A stretch of DNA of 51,151 bases from Pseudoflavonifractor sp. 524-17. Lineage in GTDB: Bacteria > Bacillota > Clostridia > Oscillospirales > Oscillospiraceae. Position numbers and translations under genes: made by a program. Below are positions 5,103-41,710 of this stretch, piece after piece (the stretch's first letter is position 1; every line of letters begins with the position of its first letter). Location of the stretch: assembly GCF_009935845.1 (NCBI RefSeq), contig NZ_QWEK01000002.1, positions 1 through 51,151 of the forward strand. The letters are read 5' to 3'. The notes below the pieces were generated by a model. The model did not search any database. It had not been told where the DNA came from and saw nothing but the letters and a program-made list of their open reading frames with translations.

Positions 5103-5212
5103 TCGTCCTCACAAACTCCATTCCGCTCCGTCCGCCTTACAGCGGACATCCGCTCCATTCCGTTGCTCGTCCTCTCCCCACCGGACCCGCTCGTGCTGGG
5201 CCCCCGTTCATT
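5103..5212 (-). repeat. Palindromic element copy 1, upstream of gpJ
   Basis: Read on the minus strand, this copy has the core hairpin with loop ACGAG (arms CCCAGC and GCGGG), then GAGAGGACGAGCAACGGAA. A second hairpin follows with GTCCGC pairing to GCGGAC, and the copy ends GGAGTTTGTGAGGACGA just before the gpJ ribosome site. It fills the gap between gpW and gpJ. Confidence 0.8.
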
Positions 5213-5531
5213 CCCCTTCCTTGATTTCAATCTGCACCGTGAAGGTCAGCTTCCCAGGATTGGACGGGTCCGGCATCAGCCTCATGTCCTTGTACACTGC
5301 CCGCGGCTCCCATTCCTCGATTGCCTCCCGTACTGGGATGACAGCCCGGTTTTTTGCCACATTTATAGGCTTGTCTAAGAAGCTCATGTCCAGGCCGAAG
5401 CTCCGGTACATGGGTACGCTTCCCTTTGGCGTCGCTAGAATAACCGCCACGTTGCGCAGGATTTCCTTTACCCTGTCCCCCTCGTCCAGCCGGATATTTG
5501 CAAGGTCCGTGGCAGATACGGTGTATTCCAT
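5208..5531 (-). CDS. Baseplate wedge protein gpW / gp25 family, 107 aa
   Basis: This small protein has the GPW/gp25 fold signature: an N-terminal extension, RVKEILRNVAVILATPKGS (about residues 20-38), then RSFGLDMSFLDKP and a C-terminal 'AIEEWEPR...' followed by beta strands. In P2 and T4 this family forms the core of the baseplate wedge with gpJ and gpI, which lie directly downstream here. Length is usual for the family (100-130 aa). The region upstream holds two tandem palindromic element modules instead of another gene. Confidence 0.9.
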   Translation of the reverse strand: MEYTVSATDLANIRLDEGDRVKEILRNVAVILATPKGSVPMYRSFGLDMSFLDKPINVAKNRAVIPVREAIEEWEPRAVYKDMRLMPDPSNPGKLTFTVQIEIKEGE

Positions 5532-5732
5532 CTCGTCGTTGCAAAGTCCGCTAAGCGCCCTTTTCGGCTGTCGCCGAAAATTGTGCCCGCTCCCTTGCTC
5601 CTCCTCTCTCGTCGTCGAAATAAACTTCGCTCCGCTCGTTTCCGGCTTGCGCCGAAAGCTCGCCGTGCTGTGTTATTTCTCCTCTCCCCACCGGACCCGC
5701 TTACGCTGGGCTTCGGTGGGGACCCCTATGGC
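5532..5732 (-). repeat. Palindromic element copy 2, two tandem modules
   Basis: On the minus strand a full hairpin (arms around CCCAGC-GTA-AGCGGG) is followed by a module ending GAAGTTTATTTCGACGA. A second module follows: GAGGAGCAAGGGAGCGGG, a TTTTCGGC/GCCGAAAA hairpin, and the end GCGGACTTTGCAACGACG, just before the ATG of gpW. The rest of the gap up to 5884 holds GC-rich short inverted repeats and no gene that I can support. Confidence 0.75.
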
Positions 5733-5884
5733 CGCTCCGCTTACGTTCCGGCGTAGGCCCCGTTTTTCAGAGATAACGTGCCATGGGCGCGCCGCCGGAA
5801 GTCCGGCGTCACAAACGTTTTGCCGTAGGCAAAACCTTGGCGCAGGGCGGATTCACTCCGCCCGAGCATTCAAATCAAAGGGGG

Positions 5885-5919
5885 CCCCAATGAAGCCCAG
5901 CGCAGCGGGTTCATTGGGG
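5885..5919 (+). repeat. Core hairpin overlapping the stop of the gpU/LysM gene
   Basis: A perfect 10-bp palindrome, CCCCAATGAA with TTCATTGGGG, encloses the family core GCCCAGCGCAGCGGG. The right arm contains the stop codon and last codons of the neighbouring gene. The left arm is therefore a reverse-complement copy of the gene's own end. Confidence 0.8.
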
Positions 5920-6558
5920 TATTTTGAATACCTGCCCCGGATAGATCAGGTTCGGACTTCCCCCTATCACATCCCGGTTCGCCTCATAGATCTTGATGTA
6001 ACCCGCGCCGCTCCCATAAAACTTTTTGGCAATGGTCCAGAGGTTGTCCCCCTTCTTTACGGTGTAGACCGTCCCGCCGGTTCCACCCGCCGCCGAAGCC
6101 GCCGGTGCTTTGGCCTTGGCCGTGTTTCCGGCGTTGTGGGTTTCCCCCTTCATATATTCCAGCAGGTCTACCGATACCTCTACAGCGTACATATCCCCCA
6201 GCCCGTCCATGTACTCCATCTTGGTCTTGTGGTCCGTGATGGTCCACCGGTATTTCCCGTATGCTTTCCCGCCTATGACCAGCCCCAGTGCCTCGCCGCT
6301 GCGCTCAAAGTCCCAAATCTTGACTACTTCTTTTAGCGGATCCACACCCAGCTCCGCCGCCAGCAGAATATCAAAGGAAAACCGGTCCGGGTCCAGCCCG
6401 GTAAACTCTGTCAGCGCGTGGGTGTTGTGCCGCTCATGGGTGGCGTACCGGGCCGAACCGCTCCACTGCATGTTTTTAGGGGTGCGGAATACCTCGCGGG
6501 AGACAATAAACTCAATCCCATCGTCCGCGCTTTTTCCCAGGTAGCCAATCAGCGCCAC
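5911..6558 (-). CDS. Tail protein gpU-like domain fused to LysM, 215 aa
   Basis: Residues 1-130 resemble the P2 gpU tail-tip family: a small beta/alpha domain with '[20 protein letters not shown]' and [20 protein letters not shown]. After an Ala/Gly-rich linker (about residues 145-163) there is a LysM domain, [18 protein letters not shown] to [13 protein letters not shown]. LysM binds peptidoglycan-like glycans; in baseplates it is usually structural. I chose the GTG at 6558 because the conserved domain starts there and the upstream part is palindromic element sequence. It lies between gpV-like and gpW genes. Confidence 0.85.
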
Positions 6559-6584
6559 ATCGTCGTCGCTCCCTTCATATCCTT

Positions 6585-6676
6585 CGCTTCGGCCTTCGGC
6601 CAAAGCTCACTCATTCCGGGGCGCCTCCTCTCCCCACCGGACCCGCCTGTCGGCTGGGCTCCGGCGGGGGCCCCTT
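6585..6676 (-). repeat. Palindromic element copy 3, upstream of gpU/LysM
   Basis: On the minus strand: GGGGCCCCCGCC arm, CCC, A, GCC, loop GACA (GNRA type), GGC, GGG, then the matching arm and GGGGAGAGGA. The loop stem is one pair longer than in most copies, and both sides change together. Confidence 0.8.
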
Positions 6677-6679
6677 TTT

Positions 6680-7989: not shown

Positions 7990-8170
7990 TACCGGCGCAG
8001 CCCAAACCGGAGCCCAGCGCAGCGGGTCCGGTTTGGAGAGGAGGGGCAAAGTAGCGTAGTGCAGTTTCACCCGCAGGGGGTGTGCGGCATCCGTAAGGCG
8101 GCAAAGCCGCCAACGGCTGCCCAATCGGCGTCAGCCGGAAATGGAACGGAGCGGATTTCGCCCCGACGAG
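7990..8170 (+). repeat. Palindromic element copy 4, opposite orientation, with nested module
   Basis: On the plus strand, CCAAACCGGA (8002-8011) and TCCGGTTTGG (8027-8036) enclose the core GCCCAGCGCAGCGGG. Then come GAGAGGAGGGGCAAAG and a GCATCCGTAAGGCGGC hairpin module (about 8089-8125), and the end GGAGCGGATTTCGCCCCGACGAG touches the stop codon of the gpX gene at 8171-8173. Confidence 0.8.
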
Positions 8171-12150: not shown

Positions 12151-12539
12151 CCCCGGGCTTTCCTCGTAATGGCTTGGAAATCCACCATATCCATCTCCAT
12201 GACGGCCTGGGTATCAATCACGCGCTTTGCCTTCTCGTCCCGCTCTGTGCAGGCCCGCGCCGTCATGCCCGCCAGGAATTCCCCCGTGAAGGCGGGGGAT
12301 ACCAGCGTCCGGCCCTTCATAAGGACTTCCTGTTCGATCTCCAGGTGGTCCCTGCCTTTCAGGGTGGTCCAGTCAAAGGTCAGGCTGTCAAAAGTACGTT
12401 CCTTCCATCGGAACGGCTTTTTGAATGTGTGGGTGTAGCTCCCGGTTTCCTGCTCTTTCTTGGCTTCCTCTTCCGCCCGTTCGGCGTCCGCCGCGTCCTC
12501 GGCCACGCCCGCCATATCCAGTCTCTTTTCCTCTTCCAT
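12129..12539 (-). CDS. Tail assembly chaperone (gpE-type), 136 aa
   Basis: The N-terminal 35 residues are acidic and disordered. The conserved domain, TFDSLTFDWTTLKGRDHLEIE through SPAFTGEFLAGMTARACT (paraphrased ends), matches the gpE/gp41-type chaperones that bind the tape measure protein before tube polymerisation. The gene lies between the tube and tape measure genes and ends with the frameshift site. The ATG at 12539 follows AAGGAGCG. Upstream sequence belongs to a palindromic element. Confidence 0.88.
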   Translation of the reverse strand: MEEEKRLDMAGVAEDAADAERAEEEAKKEQETGSYTHTFKKPFRWKERTFDSLTFDWTTLKGRDHLEIEQEVLMKGRTLVSPAFTGEFLAGMTARACTERDEKAKRVIDTQAVMEMDMVDFQAITRKARGFLLRAE

Positions 12540-12559
12540 GGTAAAATCGCTCCTTTCGT

Positions 12560-12830
12560 CCTCACAAACTCCATTCGGCTCCGCCCGGCTGGTGTCGTCG
12601 CAAAGTCCGCTATACTCGCAACGGCCTTTGGCCGTTCCTCGTTCCGCTCTCTTGCTCCTCCGATTCCCCACAAAAGCATCCGCTTTTGCGGGGATCCCTA
12701 GTTGGGCATCCGCTTCATTCCGTTGCCCCTCCTCTCCCCACGCAACCCGCTCACCCGCAAGGGGTACGCCGCATCCGTAAGGCAGCATAGCTGCCAACGG
12801 TTGCGCAGCCGCTGGGCTTGCGCGGGGACC
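12560..12830 (-). repeat. Palindromic element copy 5, composite with nested module
   Basis: The minus strand carries the core hairpin (CGCTGGG/CCCGCT on the plus strand). Its loop holds a nested module with GCCGCATCCGTAAGGCAGC, and GGCAGC-ATA-GCTGCC forms an inner hairpin. Downstream on the minus strand there is an AAAAGC/GCTTTT hairpin with CCCC/GGGG arms, then modules ending GCGGACTTTGCGACGAC and GGAGTTTGTGAGGACGA, near the chaperone start. Confidence 0.75.
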
Positions 12831-12842
12831 CCATTCTGGAAC

Positions 12843-12880
12843 AAGCCGCCCCTCCCATCACCGGGAGAGGCGGCTTTATT
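12843..12880. terminator. Rho-independent terminator-like hairpin
   Basis: AAGCCGCC pairs with GGCGGCTT, with further CTCCC/GGGAG pairing around an ATCA loop. The T tract (TTTATTC) is on the plus-strand side; the minus-strand side lacks a T run. It lies inside the late operon between tube and chaperone, so it may lower rather than end transcription there, or stop antisense transcripts. Confidence 0.6.
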
Positions 12881-12902
12881 CTTCGTTTCCCCCGTCCTAA
12901 AA

Positions 12903-13010
12903 CAAAACCGCAGCCCAGCGCAGCGGGTGCGGTTTTGATAGGAGAAAGAAACCTGCGAATATGGAGCTTTCGGCGTTAGACGGAAGCGCAATGCAGCAGG
13001 CTTCTTTCGA
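12903..13010 (+). repeat. Palindromic element copy 6, opposite orientation
   Basis: CAAAACCGCA (12903-12912) and TGCGGTTTTG (12928-12937) enclose the core GCCCAGCGCAGCGGG. The copy ends GGCTTCTTTCGA directly at the tube gene stop codon (13011-13013). Confidence 0.8.
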
Positions 13011-13529
13011 CTACATCATGCCAAGGGCACGGCGCACGTCGGCCGCGTTGTCCACGCCGTTGACTTCGTGGACCTGGTTGAACTGGTCAATGTCAATGAC
13101 TTTCTGCCCTGCCTTATATACCGTGTACCGGCACACGCTGTACGTCCCGGATGCGTCGGCGGCGCTGGCCGTCTGGATGGTCCCCTGGTTGATCTCCGTG
13201 GGCCGGATGGACATTTCAAAGCGTACCTGCTCCAGCTCTTCCTTCCGCTTCACGCCATCGAAATACTGGTCCGCCAGGTAGAGGGCGACATCGTGCCACT
13301 CGTTGGTACCCAGCTGCACAATGGCGTCTGCCACGCTGGAGAAGTCAATGCTGATGGTCATGGGTTCAATCATGCTGGCCAGGGGGATTGTCACGTCTCC
13401 CATAAGCGCCGCACCCGTCGCCGTGACAGTTTTGTACTTGATGGGTGGCATTGTCACCTTGGCGACGCCAATCAGTGCCCCGCCGTTCTCATACATCAGG
13501 TAGTCGATATGGCCGTTCGGATAAATCAT
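13011..13529 (-). CDS. Major tail tube protein, 172 aa
   Basis: The protein matches the P2 FII-like tube family: GHIDYLMYENGGALIGVAKV at the start, the central 'MTISIDFSSVADAIVQLG', a beta-rich middle, and VCRYTVYKAGQKVIDIDQF near the end. Tube subunits stack as hexamers inside the sheath. Length (170 aa) is usual. It follows the sheath gene in the order typical of contractile tails. The ATG at 13529 is preceded by GAGGACGAC, the 3' end of a palindromic element, which thus seems to supply the ribosome site. Confidence 0.92.
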   Translation of the reverse strand: MIYPNGHIDYLMYENGGALIGVAKVTMPPIKYKTVTATGAALMGDVTIPLASMIEPMTISIDFSSVADAIVQLGTNEWHDVALYLADQYFDGVKRKEELEQVRFEMSIRPTEINQGTIQTASAADASGTYSVCRYTVYKAGQKVIDIDQFNQVHEVNGVDNAADVRRALGMM

Positions 13530-13531
13530 GT

Positions 13532-13750
13532 CGTCCTCACAAACTCCTTTCCACTGCGTCCGCCTGGCGTTGTCGCAACGTCCGCTAAGTGACCTTTCCG
13601 CCTGCGGCGAAAACCGCGCTCGCTCCCTTGCTCCTCTTTTCCCCACAAAAGCATTCGCTTTTGCGGGGACCCCATTTGGACGTTCGTTCCAATCCGTTGC
13701 TCGTCCACTCCCCGCCGGATCCGCCTGACGGCTGGGCTCCGGCGGTGACC
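13532..13750 (-). repeat. Palindromic element copy 7, two modules between sheath and tube
   Basis: On the minus strand a first core hairpin (CCCAGCC-GTCA-GGCGG) leads to GAGTGGACGAGCAACGG. A second hairpin with GCAAAAGCGAATGC and CCCC/GGGG arms follows, then GAGGAGCAAGGGAGCG and an AACGCC/GGCGGAC region, ending GGAGTTTGTGAGGACGAC at the tube ATG. Confidence 0.75.
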
Positions 13751-13760
13751 CATTTTTTCC

Positions 13761-15218
13761 TTATGCCGAAAGCGCTGTTTCCATATAGGAAACGTCGTAT
13801 TCCAGGATGAAGTCGATTTCCTGCGCGGGAACGGGCGGCGCATTATAAACATGGAGCGTAATGTGTCCATCCAGCAGATTGGCCAGCGGGTTTTCCTCTG
13901 CCAGCAGTTCCGCCCGCGCGCCGTAGAGGTAGCCGCCGCCGGATAGCCCCCCCAGCCAGATATTGCAGGTCTGCAAGATGCTGTCCCGCAGGGCCGTGGT
14001 CATGGGCTTGTCCAGCTTGGACCAGAACGTGCGGATCAGGGTGTTGCCGATAAAGTCAAACATCCGGGACACGGGGATGAACTGGTCCTTGACATCGGTG
14101 TTGCCGGGGTAGCAGGCGGTGTAGTTGCCCTTGGCCACCCAGCCGGAATCCATGAAGTTGACCGCCGTAACGGCGCCCCAGCTTCCCGCTACAAGGTTCA
14201 CCTGTTCCCACGTCAGGTTGACCGGTCTGCCGTCTGCCAGTACGCAGGCGTCCATTTTCAGATTCTTATTGGAGGGGGATTCGTATGGGATTCCCCCGTT
14301 AAGGGCGTCCACCTCCGCCATCAGGCCGCACAGCTGGGTGGACAGGTGAAAGCGGTAGTCCCCCAGCTGCACCATGGGCCAGCACAGAATCTGGTCCGCG
14401 TCTACAAGACTGTTCTTGTTCTTGTAGGCGGGGATCTGGTAGTATTCGGTCACGCCGCTGTCAGTGCTATCCACGTCGATGACGGCCTTGCCCTTGAACA
14501 GTCCGTTGACAGCGGCTGCCTTTGTGGTCATCACAGCGGCCACAGCGGCAATGTGGGACCATCCCGGGGCGCAAATGAGATCCGGCACCACGCCTACCGC
14601 CGTCAGGCAGGCATCCGCCTGGGCCACGCCGTCCACCACGTCGGCCACGGTTGTGGCCTTGGGATCTGCCTGTGTATATGCGATGTTCACCTTTGCGGCG
14701 CTGTAGGCGCTGCCATTCTCCAGCAGCTCCACGATGCACACATAGGTGTCCGTGCCGTCCCGGTCATAGAACACGCTGTAATCCTCGTCCGCCGCAAGCT
14801 CCCGCTGGGTGGGCGTCCCTTCCACATCCTCTGTCACCTTGACCTGGATGGACCCGGCCACAGCCTCGATAGGCAGGGTGATTTTGTGGTCCGCAACATC
14901 ATAGTCCGCCGCCGCCACGTCCTTCTTCATGGCCTCCGGGTCCAGGATGTTGCAGAAAATTACCGGCTGCGCCCCGAAAAGCTGAAAGTGGGAGTACATG
15001 AACTCGCACAGAGAGTAAGCCTCCCAGTCATAAGAGAACCCCAGCTTCTCCACCGCCTCATCCCAGCTGGTGGCCAACACAGGCGTATTGGGCGCGGCGG
15101 GTTTTTCCGCCGTGTGGACAGGTGCCGTTCCCACCACAAAGGGAATGCCAACTGCGGCGACTTTCGGAGTGGAAACGCTTGTGGCTTTTTCAAATACATG
15201 AATTCCTAAATTTGCCAT
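13761..15218 (-). CDS. Tail sheath protein, 485 aa
   Basis: This is a contractile sheath subunit. It shows the N-terminal LGIHVFEKATSVSTPKVAAV and VGIPFVVGTAPVH, a central DLICAPGWSHIAAVAAVM, and the C-terminal conserved core DQFIPVSRMFDFIGNTLIR through 'GGYLYGARAELLAEENP', ending in a beta hairpin. It proves a myovirus-type particle. I chose the ATG at 15218, 9 bases after AAGG, over the GTG two codons earlier that overlaps the previous stop. The tube gene follows downstream. Confidence 0.95.
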   Translation of the reverse strand: MANLGIHVFEKATSVSTPKVAAVGIPFVVGTAPVHTAEKPAAPNTPVLATSWDEAVEKLGFSYDWEAYSLCEFMYSHFQLFGAQPVIFCNILDPEAMKKDVAAADYDVADHKITLPIEAVAGSIQVKVTEDVEGTPTQRELAADEDYSVFYDRDGTDTYVCIVELLENGSAYSAAKVNIAYTQADPKATTVADVVDGVAQADACLTAVGVVPDLICAPGWSHIAAVAAVMTTKAAAVNGLFKGKAVIDVDSTDSGVTEYYQIPAYKNKNSLVDADQILCWPMVQLGDYRFHLSTQLCGLMAEVDALNGGIPYESPSNKNLKMDACVLADGRPVNLTWEQVNLVAGSWGAVTAVNFMDSGWVAKGNYTACYPGNTDVKDQFIPVSRMFDFIGNTLIRTFWSKLDKPMTTALRDSILQTCNIWLGGLSGGGYLYGARAELLAEENPLANLLDGHITLHVYNAPPVPAQEIDFILEYDVSYMETALSA

Positions 15219-15220
15219 GT

Positions 15221-15580
15221 TCACTTACCTTCCTTCCCCGCCAGCTTCTGATAACTCGCGTGCAAGGCATTTCCCGGTGTCTTTACCTTCAACCTGGCTT
15301 CCGGCAGACTGTCCCCAGAGACAATCAGGGTTTTCACAAGCGAATCGGCCTTGATAGCCTTTTCCGCCTTGGCAAGCGCATCCTTCCGGGTTCCCCGGTA
15401 GATGGTCCCGGTCTGAATCAGCCCGTTTAGGTTCGGGCCGATGTAGCAGTAAAAGCCGGATGTATTGCGCTCATCCTTTTGGGGTGTAATCTCATCCGAG
15501 GTATCAGGCTGCTCCACCGCAGCATCCGCCGTCTCCAGAGCACTTTTTCCATTGTCTGCATCCGTCGTTTTTCTCGCCAT
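15221..15580 (-). CDS. Small head-tail module protein, paralogue of 17442-17819, 119 aa
   Basis: I do not recognise the family by name. An acidic, flexible N-terminal 40 residues is followed by a folded part: YCYIGPNLNGLIQTGTIYRG, a Lys-rich helix, then SLVKTLIVSGDSLPEARLK and TPGNALHASYQKL. The same series of motifs occurs in the protein at 17442-17819. It lies directly before the sheath gene, a place often held by tail terminator or connector genes. The ATG follows GGGAGAGGAG. Confidence 0.8.
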   Translation of the reverse strand: MARKTTDADNGKSALETADAAVEQPDTSDEITPQKDERNTSGFYCYIGPNLNGLIQTGTIYRGTRKDALAKAEKAIKADSLVKTLIVSGDSLPEARLKVKTPGNALHASYQKLAGKEGK

Positions 15581-15602
15581 ACGTTTTTTCTCCTCTCCCG
15601 GT

Positions 15603-16211
15603 TCACTGTAATTTGTTGGTATGATACACAGCCTTGGGGTCTACCGGCGGCAGTCCCTGTACCACCCGGGCTGCGTCCAGCCGCTTTATCGCCGGCAGCT
15701 TCCATGTGGTCACCATTTCCCCCAGGTAGAACGGCGCGGTCCCCCGCTCTCCGGTTTCCGGATATACCATCTGGCTGATTCCCTCCTCCAGGTCCAGCTC
15801 AAACAAGTTATCCAGGATAGGAAACAGCAGCAGCGCCGTGCGCATTTCTTCCATCAGGTTCAGAAGCGCCAGCCCCCCTTCCTGCTCGTCCGGGTGGTAG
15901 ACGCAGAAAACAGACCGCACAACGCAGATGCTTTGCAGCTCCCGGCGTATTTGCTGGCCTGTTCCCTTGTTCGCGTTCTTCATTGCGTCGTCGCCCGTCA
16001 CTGCCTGATGGAGAATGAACGGGGCTTTTTTCTGGTATGACGCCATATCCGGCAGGCGGGCCTTGTATACGTTGGCGGGCCTGGGCTTCGGCTCCCGCTC
16101 GTCCCGGCTCTGCCGCTTTACCGGCAGCAGCAGTTCTCCCGTCGCCAGCTTTGTGAAGTCCTCCAGGGCGTACAGCAGTCCCACCTTGGTTTCGTTGCGC
16201 AGATTAACCAT
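15603..16211 (-). CDS. Tail completion-type protein, 202 aa
   Basis: There is no named family that I can assign with certainty. The protein has an N-terminal helix (TKVGLLYALEDFTKL), a central segment ICVVRSVFCVYHPDEQEGGL, a leucine-rich helix LLNLMEEMRTALLLFPILDN, and a C-terminal PFYLGEMVTTWKLPAI. Size and place between gpZ-like and pre-sheath genes fit a tail terminator (lambda U role). The start lies just after the stop of the gpZ-like gene. Confidence 0.8.
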   Translation of the reverse strand: MVNLRNETKVGLLYALEDFTKLATGELLLPVKRQSRDEREPKPRPANVYKARLPDMASYQKKAPFILHQAVTGDDAMKNANKGTGQQIRRELQSICVVRSVFCVYHPDEQEGGLALLNLMEEMRTALLLFPILDNLFELDLEEGISQMVYPETGERGTAPFYLGEMVTTWKLPAIKRLDAARVVQGLPPVDPKAVYHTNKLQ

Positions 16212-16212
16212 T

Positions 16213-16902
16213 TCACCGCCACCCCGTCAAAACCCGGTACACCGCCTTGTCCAGCTCCGTTTCAAACGTCTGGTAGGATTCCTCTGTCAGCCGCTGCGCG
16301 ACCTCCGGCTTTCCTACCATCTGTGCCACAGAGCTGCCCATGATCTCCCGGATGGCGTCGCTTCCTTCGCTGGTCATTCCGCCGGTCCGCTCAAAGATTC
16401 CGATATGGCCGGACTTCATGCGCGCCACAAAGGCGTCCATAAACTGTGTTGGGCCGGTATCCTTGAACTGGTGGCCCTTGGCCGGTACGCCCTGGTATTG
16501 CATGGTCCATGCGCCCTTTCTCATCACCGGCTTTCTTCCCGCCGCGATGTCCTGCGTCGGGACCGCTGGCGACGCGCCGCCGAAACGGTACAGCGGTATC
16601 TTCCGCCCGGAAAATGTGATGGTGGCCTGTACGCCGTTCTGGTAGCTGTAGCTGACCCGTACATGCTTTTCCGTGCGGATGCCTGCATCCGAAATGTCGT
16701 ACTTCTCCTGGATTGCCCTGCTGCTCTCGCTTCGCAGTCTGCGGACAGTCCGGCTCATGGCGGCTTTCACGGCCTTGTCCAAGCCGCCGGGAATGCTGGC
16801 AAGCAGCGCCTTTGCCCGCTCGATAGCTTCCTGCCCCGCCGCTTCGTTGACCGTGACGGTGATGGACCCGGTGATTGCGTTGGTTCTCGCTTGCGTGTTC
16901 AT
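16213..16902 (-). CDS. Minor tail protein Z-like, 229 aa
   Basis: The protein resembles lambda gpZ and P2-like tail completion proteins. A helical N-terminus (ALLASIPGGLDKAVKAAMSR) carries conserved basic residues, a beta-rich centre has 'GVQATITFSGRKIPLYRFG', and a segment GHQFKDTGPTQFMDAFVARM is followed by GHIGIFERTGG, a strongly conserved gpZ feature. gpZ acts at the head-proximal end of the tail. The ATG at 16902 immediately follows the GTGAGGACG end of a palindromic element; the upstream open frame is element sequence, not protein. Confidence 0.88.
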   Translation of the reverse strand: MNTQARTNAITGSITVTVNEAAGQEAIERAKALLASIPGGLDKAVKAAMSRTVRRLRSESSRAIQEKYDISDAGIRTEKHVRVSYSYQNGVQATITFSGRKIPLYRFGGASPAVPTQDIAAGRKPVMRKGAWTMQYQGVPAKGHQFKDTGPTQFMDAFVARMKSGHIGIFERTGGMTSEGSDAIREIMGSSVAQMVGKPEVAQRLTEESYQTFETELDKAVYRVLTGWR

Positions 16903-17015
16903 CGTCCTCACAAACTCCATTCCGCTCCGTCCGCCTTGCGGCAGACATCTGCTCCATTTCGTTGCTCGTCCTCTCCCCACGCGGCCCGCTCCGCTGGGCT
17001 CGCGCGGGGACCCCG
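16903..17015 (-). repeat. Palindromic element copy 8, type example
   Basis: On the minus strand: GGGGTCCCCGCGCGAG, CCC, A, GC, loop GGA, GC, GGG, then CCGCGTGGGG and GAGAGGACGAGCAACG. A perfect second hairpin, GTCTGCC-GCAA-GGCGGAC, has a GNRA tetraloop. The end GGAGTTTGTGAGGACG is followed by the ATG of the gpZ-like gene. Confidence 0.85.
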
Positions 17016-17019
17016 TTTG

Positions 17020-17445
17020 TCACTCATCAACTTCCTCCAGCTTCAGGCGGTACATCCCCATTTCTGTTGTGGATTCCGCCACACGGAATTTGTGGAAGAA
17101 CGTGCCGCCCCTTTTCTCGTTCATGGACAGGCGCGTATTTTGCTCCGGCTTGATGCCGCCCATATCCTTTTCTGCGCAGTACAAGGTAATGGATCGCTTA
17201 TACAGCCCCTGCCCGAAATCATGCTGCATCTGTACTACCGAGGACCGTTTGCCCTCCTTCGGCCCAATCTCTATCACGGCGATGTCCTCATAGGTCACGC
17301 CGTCGTAAATAACCGTGCGCACCTGCGCGTGTTCATCTGGGTTCAGGAAAGCCTTTTCTACCTCTACCGCCGCGCAGTCCTTAAAAGTTGGGGAGCGCAC
17401 CTCCTCCGGTCCACTCCCCGTCCCATAGTCGAACAGTACTTTCAT
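17020..17445 (-). CDS. Head-tail connector-region protein, 141 aa
   Basis: I cannot name the family. The protein is beta-rich: VLFDYGTGSG at the start, 'AQVRTVIYDGVTYEDIAVIE' in the middle (about residues 41-60), and a C-terminal 'EMGMYRLKLEEVDE'. It has the size and position of a head-tail joining protein of the lambda FII type. The ATG at 17445 overlaps the previous stop (ATGA), and that stop is itself supplied by a palindromic element. Confidence 0.8.
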   Translation of the reverse strand: MKVLFDYGTGSGPEEVRSPTFKDCAAVEVEKAFLNPDEHAQVRTVIYDGVTYEDIAVIEIGPKEGKRSSVVQMQHDFGQGLYKRSITLYCAEKDMGGIKPEQNTRLSMNEKRGGTFFHKFRVAESTTEMGMYRLKLEEVDE

Positions 17446-19100: not shown

Positions 19101-19469
19101 CTATTTCAAGAAAATCCCGATGTTCCGCAAGGGAACTTCCACGTCCACCACGGTCACGCCCTCCGGCAGCGCCAGGCTGTCTGCAAAGTATTCCCCAGTG
19201 AGCCACACCGGCCCTTCCTCGTCCGCCCGGATGCTGTCCGGGACCACACCATAGATACCCGTGGTGGTCACGGTCGTCTTGGCACTGTCGCCCTCCCCAG
19301 TCGTAGTCGCCGCAATCAGTGCCAGCTTTCCGTCGCTGTTCAACACCACGGGCGCGTGTGCCGGGATATCCACTGCCGCCACCTTCACAGCCTTGGCTAC
19401 AGGTCCGATCCCTGCTTCAAAGTAGTGCGGGTCATAGCGGTACGTTTTCACCGCAAGGTCCATGCTCAT
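19101..19469 (-). CDS. Head decoration protein, gpD(lambda)-like, 122 aa
   Basis: The protein is short and beta-rich, with AVDIPAHAPVVLNSDGKLAL (about residues 33-52), a Thr-rich TTTGIYGVVPDSIRADE, and a terminal GVTVVDVEVPLRNIGIFLK. This fits the lambda gpD decoration family, whose trimers stabilise the expanded capsid. It lies between protease/scaffold and major capsid genes, in lambda order. The start ATG at 19469 follows GAGGACGAT from a palindromic element; the ATG two codons later is an alternative. Confidence 0.9.
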   Translation of the reverse strand: MSMDLAVKTYRYDPHYFEAGIGPVAKAVKVAAVDIPAHAPVVLNSDGKLALIAATTTGEGDSAKTTVTTTGIYGVVPDSIRADEEGPVWLTGEYFADSLALPEGVTVVDVEVPLRNIGIFLK

Positions 19470-19695
19470 ATCGTCCTCATTCCTTTCATATCCTTCGCCG
19501 CGTCGTTGCAAAGTCCGCTCTGCTCAAAACGGCCCTTCAGCCATTCTTCGCGTCGCTCCCTTGCTCCTCCTTTCCCCAACGGGCCTTTTGGCCCGCTGTG
19601 ACCCCTTGAAATCAAGCCGAAAGCTCACTCATTTCAGGATTCTTCCTCTCCCCACCGAACCCGACTATCGGCTGGGCTCCGGCGGGGGCCCTGGA
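19470..19695 (-). repeat. Palindromic element copy 10, two modules
   Basis: On the minus strand the first module has CCCAGCC-GATA-GTCGGG as core, inside CGGAG/CGG arms. The second has a GGGCC-AAAA-GGCCC hairpin, GAGGAGCAAGGGAGCGACG, then GCGGACTTTGCAACGACG and the terminal GAGGACGAT before the decoration gene ATG. Confidence 0.75.
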
Positions 19696-24756: not shown

Positions 24757-24796
24757 TGGGCTTTTCCCGCCCCTTTCCGCTCTGCCTGGTTGGCTC

Positions 24797-24908
24797 GTCC
24801 TCACAAAGTCCGTTTGTCTCCGCTTCCACCTGCGGCAAAAACTCCACCCGCTCCCTTGCTCGTCCTCTCCTACCTGGCCCGCTTGCGCTTGGCTCCAGCG
24901 GTTACCCC
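24797..24908 (-). repeat. Palindromic element copy 12, between Nu1-like gene and TerL
   Basis: On the minus strand a degenerate core hairpin (CCAAGCG-CAA-GCGGG) is followed by GAGAGGACGAGCAAGGGAGC, a pairing TTTTGCCGC region, and the end GGACTTTGTGAGGACGAGC. The GTG in this end opens the longest possible TerL frame but lacks a separate ribosome site. Confidence 0.7.
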
Positions 24909-24911
24909 GTG

Positions 24912-28459: not shown

Positions 28460-28463
28460 CATC

Positions 28464-29729: not shown

Positions 29730-29764
29730 CGAAAACCCAAAACCACAAAACGGAGGTACGCAAA

Positions 29765-30793: not shown

Positions 30794-30798
30794 CAAGA

Positions 30799-30870
30799 CC
30801 CGCAAGGCCGACGGCATCCGCCGCCGCTGGTGCAAGCCCAGCCGCCCGGCAACGGGCGGGTGCTCATGGG
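30799..30870 (+). promoter_or_regulatory. Structured leader element copy 4
   Basis: The copy starts 5 bp after the stop of the previous gene. GCCCG-GCAA-CGGGC gives a GNRA-capped hairpin; TGCTCATGGGTAAACCC gives the GGG/CCC pair. The ATG at 30910 follows AAAGGGAGGACCACAAC. Confidence 0.8.
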
Positions 30871-30909
30871 TAAACCCCAGCACCCAAAACCAAAAGGGAG
30901 GACCACAAC

Positions 30910-31582: not shown

Positions 31583-31899
31583 CGGACGAAACGCAAGTCT
31601 TTGCTCCCTACCGCTGTGTCGCCGCCTTTGCCGACGGCTCCCGGCTCCTGTTCGACGGCCTGACCCGCGAACAAGCCCGCTCGACAATGGATGCCGCAAT
31701 GGAGCAGCACGGGGATATAGGCTGGTGGAACTGGGTAACAGACGAAAACTACCGCAACGGGGAGTATTACAAGCTGATACCCCCACCGCCGCATTTCCCG
31801 TTCCCCATCCTGGACCTGTCCGACTGCCAGGCCGAGGAAGAGCGCCAGAAAGCCCTCCAGGACCCCTTTGAAGAGGACGGCGAACCCGCGTCGGAATAA
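31579..31899 (+). CDS. Hypothetical protein co-translated with the repressor, 106 aa
   Basis: The start overlaps the repressor stop (ATGA) and has AAGGGAGGCTC upstream. The protein begins VFAPYRCVAAFADGSRLLFD, has GLTREQARSTMDAAMEQHGD, a Trp-rich GWWNWVTDENYRNGEYY, and a Pro-rich tail. The family is unknown. It may be a partner of the repressor, but it lacks toxin features. Its stop codon TAA lies inside the end of a minus-strand palindromic element (copy 13). Confidence 0.78.
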   Translation: MTDETQVFAPYRCVAAFADGSRLLFDGLTREQARSTMDAAMEQHGDIGWWNWVTDENYRNGEYYKLIPPPPHFPFPILDLSDCQAEEERQKALQDPFEEDGEPASE

Positions 31900-32002
31900 A
31901 CTCCGCTCCACTCGCTTCCGGCTCTGCCGAAAGCTCGCACCGCTCTGTTATTCCTCCTTCTCCTCACGCAGCCCGCTTCGCTGGGTCTTGCGTGGGGTCC
32001 CC
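31890..32002 (-). repeat. Palindromic element copy 13, at the end of the plus-strand operon
   Basis: On the minus strand: GGGGACCCCACGCAAG, CCC, A, GC, GAA loop, GC, GGG, then CTGCGTGAGGAG, a GAGCTTTCGGC/GCCGGAAGC region, and the end GGAGCGGAGTTTATTCCGACG, which overlaps the plus-strand stop. No minus gene follows, so this copy is not a leader. Confidence 0.8.
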
Positions 32003-32005
32003 AAC

Positions 32006-36790: not shown

Positions 36791-37372
36791 TTACACCTCC
36801 TGAATGTCGATATTGAAGCGCTCCTTCATCAGTTTGCGCTTCATGAGATACTCCTTCGTACGGGTTGCGCGGCTCTTCACGTCCTCCACCTCGCGCTCCC
36901 AAGCTCCATATCCCTCACTTCCGCCTCGCGGCGAAAGTTCGCTTATTTCGCTGCTCGCGCTCTCCCCACAAAGCCCGCTGTGCTGGGCCTTTGCGGGGGC
37001 CCCGTTTTTTCTTTTCCAATACACAAAATCCGCCCTATACCGGATAGCCCGCACCCGTCGGCCCTCGCTATCGGTATAGGCTTCCTGCAAAGTGAAGTCC
37101 ACCTGTATACGCAGTTCCCGGATTTCCCCGGCCCGCTCCAGCGCGGCCAGCTCGTCATACCGGCGGGCTTCCTTCTGGCTGTCAAACCGCAGGACGGCCC
37201 CGGCTGGCGTCACCCGCTCGGTTGGTTTGTTGTGGTACTTGGCGGGCTTCCCCGGTTCTGCATCAACAGGGGAGGGGAGAGGCGGACACTTCTTCCGCCG
37301 CTCCTGCTCCGCCCACTTCCGCAAAGCCTGGGCCTGATAGGCAGGCGGCAGGTCCTTCACGTCAATTCCCAT
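36791..37372 (-). CDS. DUF1064-like nuclease interrupted in frame by a palindromic element, 193 aa
   Basis: The family features are KYHNKPTERVTPAGAVLRFD, SQKEARRYDELAALERAGEI, LQVDFTLQ-type strands, YRADFVYW (acidic active-site strand) and EVEDVKSRATRTKEYLMKRK. In DUF1064 nucleases the strands D-F-x-Y and V-E-D-V-K are normally separated by about ten residues. Here about 37 extra residues (about 123-159, APAKAQHSGLCGESASSEIS onward) lie between them and correspond exactly to a palindromic element. The reading frame is kept. The protein may still fold with a surface loop. Confidence 0.88.
   Translation of the reverse strand: MGIDVKDLPPAYQAQALRKWAEQERRKKCPPLPSPVDAEPGKPAKYHNKPTERVTPAGAVLRFDSQKEARRYDELAALERAGEIRELRIQVDFTLQEAYTDSEGRRVRAIRYRADFVYWKRKNGAPAKAQHSGLCGESASSEISELSPRGGSEGYGAWEREVEDVKSRATRTKEYLMKRKLMKERFNIDIQEV
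36900..37010 (-). repeat. Palindromic element copy 14, inside the DUF1064 reading frame
   Basis: On the minus strand: GGGGCCCCCGCAAAGG, CCC, A, GC, ACA loop, GC, GGG, then CTTTGTGGGGAGAGCG, GAGCAGCGAAATAAGC, a CGCCGC-GAG-GCGG hairpin and a GGAGCTTGGGA-type end. It has no in-frame stop in the host gene's frame. Confidence 0.85.
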
Positions 37373-37723: not shown

Positions 37724-37914
37724 TTCCCGTTCCTCCTCCCTTTCCGCCTCTTCTCCGCACAGTAGTCCCGGATGATTTCGGTCCGGTCCCGCTCGGTTGT
37801 GCTGGCTACCAGGTGCCCGTAACTGACGCCCCGCCGCTTGCTTTCCCGCACCAGGGCAGAAATCGCCTCCGATTCCGTAGCGCACCCGCCGCCCGGCAAC
37901 TCAACCATGCTCAT
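37720..37914 (-). CDS. Small basic protein, 64 aa
   Basis: SEAISALVRESKRRGVSYGH, LVASTTERDRTEIIRDYCAE and a Lys/Arg-rich end (KRRKGRRNGK) describe a small, positively charged, helical protein, possibly binding nucleic acid. The ATG overlaps the Rep stop (ATGA) and its end overlaps the next start. The family is unknown. Confidence 0.72.
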   Translation of the reverse strand: MSMVELPGGGCATESEAISALVRESKRRGVSYGHLVASTTERDRTEIIRDYCAEKRRKGRRNGK

Positions 37915-38720
37915 GTGTGTTTCCTCCCTTCTTGATTACACCGCTTCTGTTTCGGTTTCTTCGGTTTGATAAATTTCCCGTCCTTCCTGTATAGGCGTAT
38001 AGAGAGATAGGTCCCTCCGTTCACGTCGTTGTGAAACGCCTCCGCCGGGCCGGACGCCAGATAGTCTGGATACAGCTTTTCAAACCGCGTGCTGTCCTGC
38101 TTGTGTTCGGCCAGCTCCTTTGCTTTCGCCCCGGATATGCGCCCATCCCTTGTCCTTGGCTCCGGGTCCACCAGGTTTTTAGAGGCGGACCACGCCTTGC
38201 CCCCGACGGGGGACTTCACGACGTAATTTGCCAGCCCGGCCAGCCCGTTTTCATCGAATTGCAGGCGTCTGGAGTTTGCGCGTCCATATTCCCACATACC
38301 TTCCAGGGTGTCCCGGTCTATCCCCCCGTTGACAGTGATGTGGTGGTGATAGCGCCCGCCCCGCTTCCCCCGCTCTGTGACGGCTATGTATTTCAGCGGG
38401 GGCAGGCCCATCTTTTTCCGCAGGCGCTGAACCCGCCGGATATAGTTACGCAGGTTGCGGGCCGCTTCCTCGTCGCTCCCCGGCTGCTCCCCCCTGTAGG
38501 TCATGTGGATTTCCAGGTCCTCCGGCGTGAAATTCGCGTGGAAGAGGCGTGTCAGCTTTTCTTCCCGGTGCTTTTGGTTGAGCTTCTTTTGGGCCTGCGT
38601 GGAGGGCCTTCTTTTGGCCCGCTTCCCGCCGCTGTGCTTCCCCGTCTCAAAGACGGGATAGATAAACACGTCCAGGTATTCCCCGCAGACATACTTCTTT
38701 TCCCGGTACACGGTGCGCAT
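37911..38720 (-). CDS. HUH rolling-circle replication initiator, 269 aa
   Basis: Motif I is LEIHMTYRG (about residues 69-77), the HUH motif is GGRYHHHITVNG (His at about 125-127), and motif III is GLANYVVKSP with the probable catalytic Tyr at about 166 and a Lys three residues on. These are the motifs of HUH endonucleases that nick an origin and stay bound by the Tyr. No helicase domain is present, so host helicase is needed. P2-type phages also use a rolling-circle initiator, which fits the tail type. Confidence 0.88.
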   Translation of the reverse strand: MRTVYREKKYVCGEYLDVFIYPVFETGKHSGGKRAKRRPSTQAQKKLNQKHREEKLTRLFHANFTPEDLEIHMTYRGEQPGSDEEAARNLRNYIRRVQRLRKKMGLPPLKYIAVTERGKRGGRYHHHITVNGGIDRDTLEGMWEYGRANSRRLQFDENGLAGLANYVVKSPVGGKAWSASKNLVDPEPRTRDGRISGAKAKELAEHKQDSTRFEKLYPDYLASGPAEAFHNDVNGGTYLSIRLYRKDGKFIKPKKPKQKRCNQEGRKHT

Positions 38721-39485: not shown

Positions 39486-39697
39486 TCTCTTTGCCTCACG
39501 TTCATTGATTTGGACCCGTTTACCGGGTGTCCATCGTTTTTCTGCCCTTTGTCATTCAACCAATGCAGGTGTTTACACCGCCGCATCACGCACCCCCGCC
39601 GCCGTATGTAAACGTCGTTCATCAGCCGTTCATGCAGAGCGCACCAGGCCGTGGCGTTGGCAGGTGTCTTGCGTGGCTTCCGCTTTTTCCTTGCCAT
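39446..39697 (-). CDS. Small basic Cys/His protein, 83 aa
   Basis: KKRKPRKTPANATAWCALHE, then RRRGCVMRRCKHLHWLNDKG suggest a small zinc-binding, nucleic acid-binding protein (one Cys, then C-x4-C-x-H). It follows the methyltransferase stop by 1 bp and overlaps the next gene by 40 bp. The family is unknown. The ATG at 39697 is the only start consistent with the preceding stop. Confidence 0.68.
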   Translation of the reverse strand: MARKKRKPRKTPANATAWCALHERLMNDVYIRRRGCVMRRCKHLHWLNDKGQKNDGHPVNGSKSMNVRQREWLTSKGWTRRGS

Positions 39698-39698
39698 G

Positions 39699-41294
39699 TC
39701 ACGCCGACACCACTCTTTCCAGCTCCTCCATCGTCCGCAGTTTCTTCCCGCACCACTCCGGGAGGTTGGCCCGCACCACGGCCTCGGCCATCGGCGGACA
39801 TACCGCGTTCCCACAGCGTGCCACCTGTTTGCTTTTCCTGTAGGCCCGGCCCGTGTAGTCCCGGTCGATGATGTAGTCAGGCGGGAATCCCATGGCGTTG
39901 TAAAGCTCCCTCGGCGTCAGCATCCGCAGGCCGATGTCGGCCATGAAATAATGTGCCCCATTCACATTCAGCAGGAGGGCTTCATTGTCTTTCAGGTCGT
40001 ACCCGCAGAATCGGTTAAGCAACGTCCGTATCTCCGGCCAGTGCTTCATATCCGCATCCGGCCCATAGGCCCGTATCTCCGTGCGGATTTCCGCAAATTC
40101 CCCGGCGCTGGCCGTAATGGTCCGCAGGGGCTTCCTTTCGTCCTGGCCTATGTCCTGCCCTTTGAACTCGCATATATGCGTCAGTGTCAGGGCTTCCCGG
40201 TCGTGTGAAGTCACGGTCCGCATCGGCTGGGAAATGTCCAGCGGGTTTCCGTTCCCGTAATACTCCACCAGGTTTGCCGCCACCAGTCCGTAGCGGTTGG
40301 AGGCGTCCACCGTTCGCAGCGGCTCCGCGACGCCCTGCCCCCGTACATTCTCGCTCTGCTCTGTGTGATACTGAATCAGTGCGGGAGACAGCAACATTTG
40401 ATTTCCCGCCGTGGTGATGGTATGTATCGGGTCCGTTACTGGCTCGCCTACCGAATTTGTGGTGTTCGTCACGATCCACGGCACGATGTACGGCGTCTTG
40501 GTCTTTATCACGAACTTGTCCACCCCACGAATCACGCGCCGCATTGTGTTGTCTGCAAGCGGCCTTACCGCATTGACGCCGTACCGGCTTTTGATTTCCT
40601 CCTTTGTTGCAAATATGGAATAGCACGGCTGGCCCCAGTCGATAACCTCCGCCGCCGCCCTCCACTTCGGCAGGCCGTCGGCCCCGTCCCTGTCGTGGGT
40701 CCGCTCCGGCCACACGATAGGCCGTCCGTCACACCGCGCCACCAGGACAAAGCGCTTTCGTGTTGTGGGCGCTCCGTAGTCCGCCGCCACCAGCTCCCGG
40801 TGTTCGATGGTGTACCCCAGGTCTGATAACTGTTTCTTCCACCGCTGGAAGGTCTGGCCCGCCTTTTTCTTGACCGGCTTTCCCCGGCGGACCGGCCCCC
40901 AGGTCTGAAATTCCTCCACGTTCTCCAGGATAATCACGCGGGGCCTGACAGTCCCGGCCCAGCGCAGGACAATCCACGCAAGGCCCCGGATATTCCGGTC
41001 CACCAGGGCCGCGCCCTTCGCCTTGGAAAAGTGCTTGCAATCCGGGGAGAACCACGCCAGCCCTACCGGACAGCCGCCGCACTCCTTCACCGGGTCCACG
41101 TCCCACAGGTCGGCTTGTAGGTGCCGGGTGTGCGGGTGGTTGGTCTTGTGCATCAGAATAGCGTCCGGGTCGTGGTTGATTGCTGTTTTCACAATGCGCC
41201 CAGTCGCCAGCTCCATCCCGGTTGAAGCACCGCCGCCGCCCGCGAAATTGTCCACGATGATTTCATCCGGCGCACTAAATCGAATCCTGCTCAA
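39699..41294 (-). CDS. C5-cytosine DNA methyltransferase, 531 aa
   Basis: Motif I is VDNFAGGGGASTGMELA (about residues 14-30). Motif IV carries SPDCKHFS, with P-D-C where most enzymes have P-C. The ENV of motif VI is in IILENVEEFQTW, and motif VIII reads AADYGAPTTRKRFVLVA. The C-terminal GMxPRELYNAMGFPPDY-like motif IX/X is present (LTPRELYNAMGFPPDYI). The enzyme transfers a methyl group from SAM to C5 of cytosine. No restriction partner is close by, so it probably protects phage DNA. It is longer than usual, with a long target recognition region. Confidence 0.93.
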   Translation of the reverse strand: MSRIRFSAPDEIIVDNFAGGGGASTGMELATGRIVKTAINHDPDAILMHKTNHPHTRHLQADLWDVDPVKECGGCPVGLAWFSPDCKHFSKAKGAALVDRNIRGLAWIVLRWAGTVRPRVIILENVEEFQTWGPVRRGKPVKKKAGQTFQRWKKQLSDLGYTIEHRELVAADYGAPTTRKRFVLVARCDGRPIVWPERTHDRDGADGLPKWRAAAEVIDWGQPCYSIFATKEEIKSRYGVNAVRPLADNTMRRVIRGVDKFVIKTKTPYIVPWIVTNTTNSVGEPVTDPIHTITTAGNQMLLSPALIQYHTEQSENVRGQGVAEPLRTVDASNRYGLVAANLVEYYGNGNPLDISQPMRTVTSHDREALTLTHICEFKGQDIGQDERKPLRTITASAGEFAEIRTEIRAYGPDADMKHWPEIRTLLNRFCGYDLKDNEALLLNVNGAHYFMADIGLRMLTPRELYNAMGFPPDYIIDRDYTGRAYRKSKQVARCGNAVCPPMAEAVVRANLPEWCGKKLRTMEELERVVSA

Positions 41295-41710
41295 CGTCTC
41301 TCTCTCCAGTCCTTGATGATGTCCCGGACGGTCGCCGCCGCGCAGTAGTACAGCACAGGCAGAAGCAGCGCCAGCGCTTCGCCGCCGACGGCGAAATACC
41401 CCCGCTCCTGCATAGCGTAGGCCGCGCCCAGCTTATACAGCAGGACCCCGGCCACCGTCAGGAACACATACCACGCCACGGTCCAGCCGTTGCATCGAAA
41501 GAAATTCCGCTCCGTTCTGCTTCTGGCTTCCGCCGAAAGCTCCACCCGCTCCATTCCTTTCTCCTTTCCCCACGAAACCCGCTTACCTGCAAGGGGTACG
41601 CCGCATCCGTAAGGCGGCTTTACCGTCAACGGCTGCTCAGTCGCTGGGCTTTCGTTGGGACCCCTTTTGTCTTGTCCCGCTCGGATTTTGATGTACTTGA
41701 CCTTTTCCAC
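41291..41710 (-). CDS. Small membrane protein with in-frame palindromic element, 139 aa
   Basis: The GTG start (41710) follows GGGAGGTGAAACC. Residues 1-15 are basic (EKVKYIKIRAGQDK). Residues about 16-72 are the translation of a palindromic element with a nested module, ending TERNFFR. The rest holds two membrane segments (about 76-98, WTVAWYVFLTVAGVLLYKLG; and about 107-127) and a basic end. It overlaps the methyltransferase start. Without the element the protein would be about 82 aa, a normal size for small phage membrane proteins. Confidence 0.75.
   Translation of the reverse strand: MEKVKYIKIRAGQDKRGPNESPATEQPLTVKPPYGCGVPLAGKRVSWGKEKGMERVELSAEARSRTERNFFRCNGWTVAWYVFLTVAGVLLYKLGAAYAMQERGYFAVGGEALALLLPVLYYCAAATVRDIIKDWRERR
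41495..41667 (-). repeat. Palindromic element copy 15, composite, inside a reading frame
   Basis: The core hairpin arms (CGAAA..CCCGCT and CGCTGGG..TTTCG on the plus strand) enclose a nested module with GCCGCATCCGTAAGGCGGC. The minus-strand 3' part, GGAATGGAGCGGGTGGAGC to CGGAGCGGAATTTCTTTCG, is nearly identical to copy 11 in TerL. Confidence 0.82.

What the first reader, a model, noticed from the sequence alone, without database searches (positions are those of the whole stretch)
5103..41667. A family of palindromic, RNA-like elements with covarying arms, spread through the phage
At least 14 copies share a core (CCC, unpaired A, GC or GCC, loop of 3-5 nt often GNA/GNRA, GC or GGC, GGG). The outer arms differ in each copy yet remain complementary: CCAAACCGGA/TCCGGTTTGG at 8002, CAAAACCGCA/TGCGGTTTTG at 12903, CCCCAATGAA/TTCATTGGGG at 5885, CGCGCGAG/CCGCGTGG at about 16990. 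A second hairpin follows in several copies (GTCTGCC-GCAA-GGCGGAC at about 16935). The 3' ends fall into a few types (GGAGTTTGTGAGGACGA, GCGGACTTTGCAACGACG, GGAATTTCTTTCG). Changes on both sides of stems are direct evidence for selection on, or copying through, a folded form. Copies lie in both orientations, between stops and starts, mainly in the late module.
Basis: partly seen in the sequence, partly recalled or inferred. Interest (0 to 1): 0.88.

Follow-up and report, generated by a model that had tools for sequence, protein, structure and literature searches.

The report
Mobile hairpin elements in gut phages
A prophage of a gut bacterium carries about twenty whole or partial copies of a roughly 113-letter DNA element that folds into two hairpins, has spread through related phages and bacterial chromosomes, and is kept foldable by matched mutations on both sides of its stems, but no enzyme that moves it has been found.

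Summary
A covariance model built from 29 copies finds 20 matches in the window. A full copy is about 113 nt: hairpin 1 (variable arms, often with core CCC-A-GC…GCGGG) plus one long hairpin 2. In 75 copies not used to build the model (though found with it), 97.2% of pair cells pair, 25 of 27 pairs show double changes, and there are 505 double-change cells against 136 in shuffles. Tandem G·A steps are exchanged for Watson-Crick pairs.

It has been mobile: related phages hold empty sites; copies nest in tips of other palindromes; one lies in frame in a DUF1064 gene and is absent from 13 of 13 homologues aligned. It occurs in 32 of 60 genomes (own plus relatives), up to 48 copies each. It reaches no Rfam gathering score, is not a terminator (0 of 201 with a T run), and has no consistent transposase.

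Best reading: a non-autonomous palindromic element moved as a folded strand by an unidentified trans-acting process. Structure and past mobility are shown; the mover is inferred. REP-like, but it fails defining features of the CGTC family.

The parts
5102..5208 (-). Copy A1; 5' arm of hairpin 1 missing; tail GGAGTTTGTGAGGACGA; site empty in L022
5535..5607 (-). Copy B4, 3' part only (hairpin 2 with tail GCGGACTTTGCAACGACG), directly followed by an ATG
5611..5729 (-). Copy D2, complete, adjoining B4
5877..5928 (+). Hairpin 1 only (CCCCAATGAAG-CCCAGCGCAGCGGG-TTCATTGGGG)
6559..6677 (-). Copy C1, complete
7994..8170 (+). Copy D6, opposite orientation, with the 57-nt repeat 8067-8123 nested in hairpin 2; site empty in L019, L022, L029
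12556..12835 (-). Composite copy A3: hairpin 1 (12719-12835) with the 57-nt repeat 12751-12807 in its loop; hairpin 2 split by nested copy B1
12591..12701 (-). Nested copy B1 inside the apex of hairpin 2 of A3
   Evidence: L113 shows an unfilled apex
12900..13014 (+). Copy D5, opposite orientation; orthologous copies in L018 and L019, absent in L022
13530..13755 (-). Composite copy A4 between sheath and tube genes, hairpin 2 split by B2; 16 relatives have a 29-87 nt junction here
13566..13676 (-). Nested copy B2 inside the apex of hairpin 2 of A4
   Evidence: L121 shows an unfilled apex
16901..17017 (-). Copy A2, complete; its last base and the target make the ATG of the next gene; site empty in L016, L018, L019
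17440..17493 (-). Deletion derivative: 5' half of hairpin 1 joined to a B-type tail (weak model match 17398-17493, 27.8 bits)
19465..19695 (-). Composite copy C2 (left part 19616-19695), split by nested copy B3
19499..19608 (-). Nested copy B3 in hairpin 2 of C2
24618..24736 (-). Copy D1, complete, upstream of the terminase large subunit gene
24794..24911 (-). Copy B5, complete
31887..32005 (-). Copy D3, complete
36890..37006 (-). Copy E1, in frame inside a DUF1064 gene (36791-37372 -)
41491..41667 (-). Copy D4 with the 57-nt repeat (41583-41639) in the loop of hairpin 1

Best explanation
A family of non-autonomous mobile palindromic elements of about 113 nt. One strand, from the 5' foot GGGG to the 3' end GACGA, folds into hairpin 1 and a long hairpin 2 built of short Watson-Crick steps separated by G·A/A·G and GNA/GNA internal loops. 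SHOWN: the fold is selected in this family; copies have inserted at many sites, including the tips of other palindromes and one open reading frame; they are dispersed over phages and non-phage loci of many related genomes. INFERRED: they are moved in trans, as the folded single strand, by an enzyme or replication process not yet identified, and land where an insertion is harmless (gene junctions) or where DNA exposes a single-stranded tip (hairpins). In the phage late operon the purine-rich right end (GGAG…GAGGACGA, then ATG) can serve as the ribosome-binding site of the next gene, which would explain why co-oriented copies accumulate there.
For: Covariation on copies outside the model set: 97.2% of cells paired, 25 of 27 pairs with double changes, 0 of 500 shuffles as high; a ranking of column pairs that ignores the structure gives the same helices. 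Tandem G·A at 51-52/109-110: GA/GA in 68 of 113, else mostly Watson-Crick (GA/TC 9, GG/CC 8, AA/TT 6). Empty sites: sheath/tube junction 248 nt in the window against 29-87 nt in 16 relatives; eight further phage sites, e.g. L019:8905 against L018 and L022 with flanks 89-94% identical; DUF1064 insert absent in 13 of 13 aligned homologues. Nesting: B in A-type twice, B in C-type once; copies in the tips of a GGGACGGTT…AACCGTCCC palindrome in G029 with different leftover tips and of another palindrome in G005. Dispersal: 27 matches in the own genome, 32 of 60 genomes; 111 ORFs around 29 loci outside the window hit 83 Pfam families, none in more than 3 ORFs, among them PGK, TIM, IMPDH and MobL; one copy lies between tRNA-Lys and tRNA-Glu genes (L221). 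Phage copies: start codon within 35 nt of the right end in 27 of 42, of the left end on the other strand in 8 of 42.
Against: No mobilising gene was found. No consistent target-site duplication was seen; the left junction (weak AAC before GGGG) is poorly defined. Palindrome-tip insertion is a minority: 14 of 201 copies have flank complementarity of 8 or more against 1.4% in mismatched flanks, 12 of the 14 from two genomes, and phage copies show 2 of 51. The apparent empty site for L025:9002 may be a deletion remnant. Several empty sites differ from the occupied ones in neighbouring bases, so precise insertion is shown at few sites; the G004/G020 against G008 comparison rests on about 66% identity on one side. 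Copies inside amplified compound repeats (G005) are not independent. DNA energy parameters give the long hairpin 2 in only two of four copies. The 75 test copies were found with the model, which favours it. That phage copies supply a working ribosome-binding site is untested.
Confidence: 0.66

Rival explanations
1. A cis-acting RNA regulator (translation control or antitermination) of phage late genes, copied between operons by recombination and kept for its function; mobility is incidental.
For: Phage copies mostly lie just before a start codon in the gene's orientation, 27 of 42 against 8 of 42; the strand held foldable is the coding strand there; the ribosome-binding purines lie in the foot of hairpin 2.
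Against: Copies outside phage loci show much weaker bias (20 of 60 against 14 of 60) and neighbour unrelated genes. Three of 20 window matches face the other way, one copy lies inside a coding frame, and nested copies split each other. Sixteen relatives do without the element at the sheath/tube junction.
Confidence: 0.18
2. A member of the REP/REPIN or IS200/IS605-derived class, moved by a RAYT-type Y1 (HUH) transposase that recognises the hairpins.
For: Hairpins, dispersed copies and a conserved end; Y1_Tnp (PF01797) matches occur in 16 of 37 and 4 of 8 genomes searched; in G029 one palindrome of the kind that hosts the elements lies inside a RAYT-like gene and another about 170 nt from it; the end GACGA is TCGTC on the other strand, like the CGTC tag.
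Against: G004, G007, G012, G014 and G042 (95-100% complete, 2-5 matches each) have no Y1_Tnp match. The published GTAG and CGTC repeats are 20-40 bp palindromes with an unpaired tag (abstract; section 6), whereas here the end is paired. No Y1 gene was seen with the element as its terminus.
Confidence: 0.16
3. Intrinsic terminators or bidirectional terminator debris.
For: GC-rich hairpins between genes; an A run precedes some copies (AAAAA within 14 nt in 12 of 201), which would be a T run on the other strand.
Against: TTTTT after the right end in 0 of 201; A-rich left flank in 22 of 201 against 8 of 201 for control positions. Long-range pairing of the tail with the linker and G·A steps are not terminator features.
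Confidence: 0.02

Closest known systems
CGTC-tagged REP families (Di Nocera et al. 2013, PMC3733652; abstract, section 6, section 8 and part 1 of section 17 read)
   Same: Dispersed, structure-conserved palindromes with a CGTC-like end (GACGA = TCGTC), without a dedicated transposase, sometimes inside genes
   Different: Those are 20-40 bp with one 8-9 bp stem, 4-5 nt loop, unpaired CGTC and mostly CCA tail, mostly alpha-Proteobacteria; here about 113 nt, two hairpins, paired end, Clostridia and their phages
GTAG REPs / REPINs with RAYTs (PMC3116915, PMC2817692; search listings only)
   Same: Palindromic miniature mobile DNA
   Different: No GTAG tag, and no consistent Y1 transposase
Rickettsia palindromic elements (in-frame insertion recalled; the text read links RPE-4 and RPE-6 to CGTC REPs)
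   Same: Palindrome inserted in frame in a coding gene and read through
   Different: Only one coding-frame case examined here; different fold, size and hosts
IS200/IS605-derived MITEs (recalled)
   Same: Two hairpins, no obvious target duplication, insertion into single-stranded DNA plausible
   Different: No family member with a transposase gene found; foot tetrad covaries with the stem base, which I do not recall for these
Candidate structured RNAs of human microbiomes (PMC8040213; passages seen)
   Same: 250 of 3161 candidates there are palindromic; this family could be among them
   Different: The tables could not be looked up here, so identity was not checked; no mobility analysis in the passages seen

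Membership tests
CGTC-tagged REP | CGTC motif at one end, not base-paired | tested here: not met
   End motif GACGA is conserved (G 96%, A 95%, C 93%, G 91%, A 78% of 112), but the C of GAC pairs (47-114, 105 of 113 Watson-Crick)
CGTC-tagged REP | One stem of 8-9 bp, loop 4-5 nt, short tail mostly CCA | tested here: not met
   Two hairpins over about 113 nt
CGTC-tagged REP | No association with a transposase gene | tested here: met
   (sampled genomes and flanks only)
GTAG REP / RAYT system | GTAG tag at one end of the hairpin | tested here: not met
   5' foot is GGGG, preceded weakly by AAC; 3' end is GACGA
GTAG REP / RAYT system | Cognate Y1 transposase in carrier genomes | tested here: inconclusive
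   Present in 16 of 37 and 4 of 8 genomes; absent from several near-complete carriers; copies there could be fossils
IS200/IS605-derived MITE | Termini shared with a full-length transposase-bearing element | tested here: inconclusive
   No family in more than 3 of 111 flanking ORFs (25 of 83 families listed; one TnpV); no search for hairpin 1 - gene - hairpin 2 was run
Intrinsic terminator | T run directly after the hairpin | tested here: not met
   0 of 201
Any Rfam 15 family | Match at the gathering score | tested here: not met
   Whole window: only four Twister-sister matches at 27872-30876; lax search of 12500-13800 gave three matches, all below gathering score
Mobile element (general) | Occupied and empty homologous sites | tested here: met
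   less clearly

The most novel reading that the evidence does not exclude
A mobile element that spreads as a folded single strand (RNA or DNA) into exposed hairpin tips and gene junctions, using a housekeeping or phage process rather than its own transposase. Its recognition code would be structural: tandem G·A and GNA/GNA steps that can be exchanged for Watson-Crick pairs, and a foot tetrad that tracks the base of the stem.
Probability: 0.28. Interest if true: 0.86.

Novelty: new variant of a known kind. Interest (0 to 1): 0.66.

Why it matters
It would be a dispersed mobile palindrome family in gut Clostridia and their phages with very strong covariation, which turns an old open question (how transposase-less palindromic repeats spread) into a testable one: the stems, the G·A steps and the ends can be changed and compensated one by one in a laboratory assay. 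It also suggests that short phage gene junctions can be rewritten by elements that bring their own ribosome-binding purines.

Tried and rejected
Y1_Tnp as mover: not consistently present. The prophage HUH Rep (37911-38720 -) as mover: 8 viral loci found, one of them the window; the other seven gave no model match within the stretches held, but the phage of L299 carries two copies elsewhere (L022), so this is no evidence for or against. Shared neighbour gene: no family in more than 3 of 111 ORFs. Terminator reading. Rfam. Palindrome tips as the general target: only a minority. Target-site duplication: looked for by eye in the pairs; a short ACG on both sides in several phage copies did not hold generally. 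A leader peptide read from the hairpin 2 region was considered by eye, but its frame differs between copy types, so I dropped it; no call tested it. Phage DNA records gave one partial hit (52% of the query) and no near match to 12500-20500. Two genus-wide DNA searches for empty sites mostly returned other copies; one gave the G008 site. Paper searches for an earlier description showed none of this family in the listings; the library holds only part of the literature, my terms were few, and only three papers were opened (PMC3733652, PMC12306157, PMC8040213). The pattern-matched contigs L117, L118, L137 and L139 (Myxococcales, Alistipes, Bacteroidetes, Saprospiraceae; 4 of 24) were not tested with the model and may be chance; the other 20 were tested and each gave a match.
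Full report
WHAT WAS CHECKED. The window is a prophage: terminase, portal, major head protein, sheath and tape measure are on the - strand and an integrase is at 47294-48628 +. On the element strand (17 of 20 matches are on -, like the late genes) a full copy runs GGGG-N-CCCC-arm-CCCAGC-loop-GCGGG-arm'-TGGGG-AGAGGACGAGCAACGGAATG…hairpin apex…GGAGTTTGTGAGGACGA. MAFFT alignment of 29 copies from the window and relatives and RNAalifold gave hairpin 1 plus a second, long-range helix joining the linker to the tail. With that structure 93.9% of cells pair (shuffles 77.8%) and 126 cells have changes on both sides (shuffles 32.9; slid partners at most 37).

FURTHER COPIES. Model R1 gave 141 matches over 99 sources and 75 over 66 further loci. 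The 75 share no locus and no sequence with the 29, but were found with the model: 97.2% of 1899 cells pair, 25 of 27 pairs show double changes, 505 double-change cells (shuffles 135.6, slid at most 113), covariation score 0.694 against 0.214. On the 141 (130 distinct) the figures are 95.3%, 25 of 27 and 658 against 185. These alignments are fitted to the model, and shuffles do not remove relatedness. A ranking of all column pairs by APC-corrected G statistic, without using the structure, on 113 rows (141 minus rows with under 85 letters or at least 90% identical to a kept one) puts stem pairs in the first nine places; the alignment itself was still model-guided.

FOLD DETAILS. In the 113 rows, G·U pairs outnumber A·C 130 to 46 among 2340 stem cells, so the element strand is the one held foldable. 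Columns 48-49/112-113 read GA/GA in 100 of 113. Columns 51-52/109-110 read GA/GA in 68 and otherwise mostly Watson-Crick (GA/TC 9, GG/CC 8, AA/TT 6, GC/GC 3). Columns 58-60/100-102 read GNA/GNA in at least 93 of 113. That such steps form sheared G·A pairs is recalled, not tested. As RNA, seven copies fold with z from -3.16 to -7.03; the opposite strand of one gave -2.21. As DNA the element strand of four gave z -1.18 to -3.84, with the long hairpin 2 predicted in two of the four, and the opposite strand of one -1.87. The 5' foot tetrad tracks the base of hairpin 1: A in the foot opposite A/T stem pairs in 18 of 31 in parallel register (shuffled 3.5, maximum 11 in 2000 shuffles) and 8 of 31 in antiparallel register (shuffled 3.2, maximum 9); a full G-for-G/C, A-for-A/T rule fits only 20 of 61 informative positions. 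Relatedness was not controlled there and I have no mechanism for it.

MOBILITY. At the sheath/tube junction the window has about 248 nt (two nested copies); the 16 relatives that passed the script's filter, of 79 other loci fetched, have 29-87 nt, 15 of them 29-36. Other occupied/empty pairs: L019:8905 against L018 and L022; L022:3098 against L019, L016 and the window; window 16901 against L016, L018 and L019; window 5102 against L022; window 7994 against L019, L022 and L029; the 12900 copy, seen through its L018 and L019 orthologues, against L022; L098:6902 against L108 and L120; the truncated 17440 copy against L018, L019 and L022. L025:9002 against L041 is ambiguous, because L041 may hold a remnant. 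G004 and G020 carry a copy beside a gene cluster (a relaxase-like frame by eye) where G008 has none; that comparison is less close. Copy E1 lies in frame in DUF1064. I aligned 13 of the 36 other loci found: 13 of 13 lack it, and it sits in a variable segment between RADFxY and VEDVKS; a model search of most of these loci gave three matches, none at this place.

NESTING AND TIPS. B-type copies sit in the apex of hairpin 2 of two A-type copies and one C-type copy. An unrelated 57-nt repeat sits in hairpin 1 loops at 12751 and 41583. Of 48 matches in G029, nine were looked at; seven are of one subtype, and six of these seven sit within GGGACGGTT…AACCGTCCC-like palindromes with different leftover tips (the seventh, L200, does not). 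In G005 eleven copies match the two sides of another palindrome whose unfilled copy is in L213; these are probably one insertion, later amplified. Over 201 copies, flank complementarity of 8 or more occurs in 14, twelve of them from G005 and G029, against 1.4% for mismatched flanks. So tips are a repeated but minor target.

DISTRIBUTION. The own genome has 27 matches: 18 in this 51-kb window and 9 elsewhere in 3.7 Mb. Of 60 genomes (own plus relatives), 32 have matches: 28 of 37 in the same family and 4 of 23 outside it; the highest counts are 48 (G029), 34 (G020), 27 (G000) and 23 (G034) (stricter filters). An exact pattern with 19 fixed bases finds 24 stretches in the genome collection, 20 with Clostridia or Bacillota names such as Flavonifractor, Pseudoflavonifractor, Oscillibacter and Intestinimonas. 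111 ORFs around 29 loci outside the window hit 83 Pfam families, none in more than 3 ORFs (only 25 families are listed, one of them a single TnpV; ORFs overlapping a copy by 60 bases or more were excluded). One copy in the own genome fills the space between tRNA-Lys and tRNA-Glu genes (L221).

ENDS AND GENE CONTEXT. The right end GACGA is sharply conserved (G 96%, A 95%, C 93%, G 91%, A 78%) and conservation drops after it; the left flank AAC is weak (112 copies). In phage loci a start codon of a frame of 60 or more codons lies within 35 nt of the right end in 27 of 42, and of the left end on the other strand in 8 of 42; in other loci 20 of 60 and 14 of 60 (11 of 113 copies too near a locus end were left out). 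Many phage loci were fetched with a pattern from the right end, which could inflate one tail type.

WHAT IT IS NOT. Not a terminator family, no Rfam 15 gathering-score match, not a CGTC REP by that paper's own features, and not tied to Y1 transposases: G004, G007, G012, G014 and G042, 95-100% complete with 2-5 matches, have none, though G029 has one, with a host-type palindrome inside the gene and another about 170 nt away.

CONCLUSION. A family of two-hairpin mobile palindromes that I could not place in a described one. Structure and past mobility are shown. The mover, whether the folded strand is RNA or DNA, and any benefit to the phage are inferred or unknown.

Noticed in passing
window 27872-27955, 28460-28544, 29652-29734, 30795-30876 (+): Four Twister-sister ribozymes (Rfam, 79-85 bits) on the + strand, lying, by eye, between successive + strand reading frames, opposite to the late genes.
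   Followed up: no
window 8067-8123, 12751-12807, 29590-29646, 41583-41639: A separate 57-nt repeat, strongly folded in the two copies tested, nests inside three of the elements and lies directly before a Twister-sister ribozyme in the fourth place; one further partial copy on G000:C117.
   Followed up: partly
model positions 4-7 against 9-12/40-43: The 5' foot tetrad covaries in parallel register with the base of hairpin 1 (AGGG-TCCC-GGGA, GGGA-CCCA-TGGG), reminiscent of purine triplex codes (recalled).
   Followed up: partly
L041, counterpart of L025:9002-9111: TAACGGAGAGACGCAAGGACGATG where L025 has a copy: possibly a remnant with both hairpins deleted.
   Followed up: no
L370 (G029:C45:18191-19031): A RAYT-like gene of 280 codons carries a GGGGACGGTT…AACCGTCCCC palindrome in frame, with another about 170 nt away.
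   Followed up: partly
L236 (G042), 2003-2119 and 2124-2241: Two element copies in direct tandem.
   Followed up: no
L221 (G000:C51), copy at 2001-2117 (-): The copy lies between tRNA-Lys (2153-2228 -) and tRNA-Glu (1926-2000 -), abutting the latter.
   Followed up: yes
window 37911-38720 (-): A rolling-circle type Rep protein (PF23343) in a tailed prophage; seven other viral loci.
   Followed up: partly
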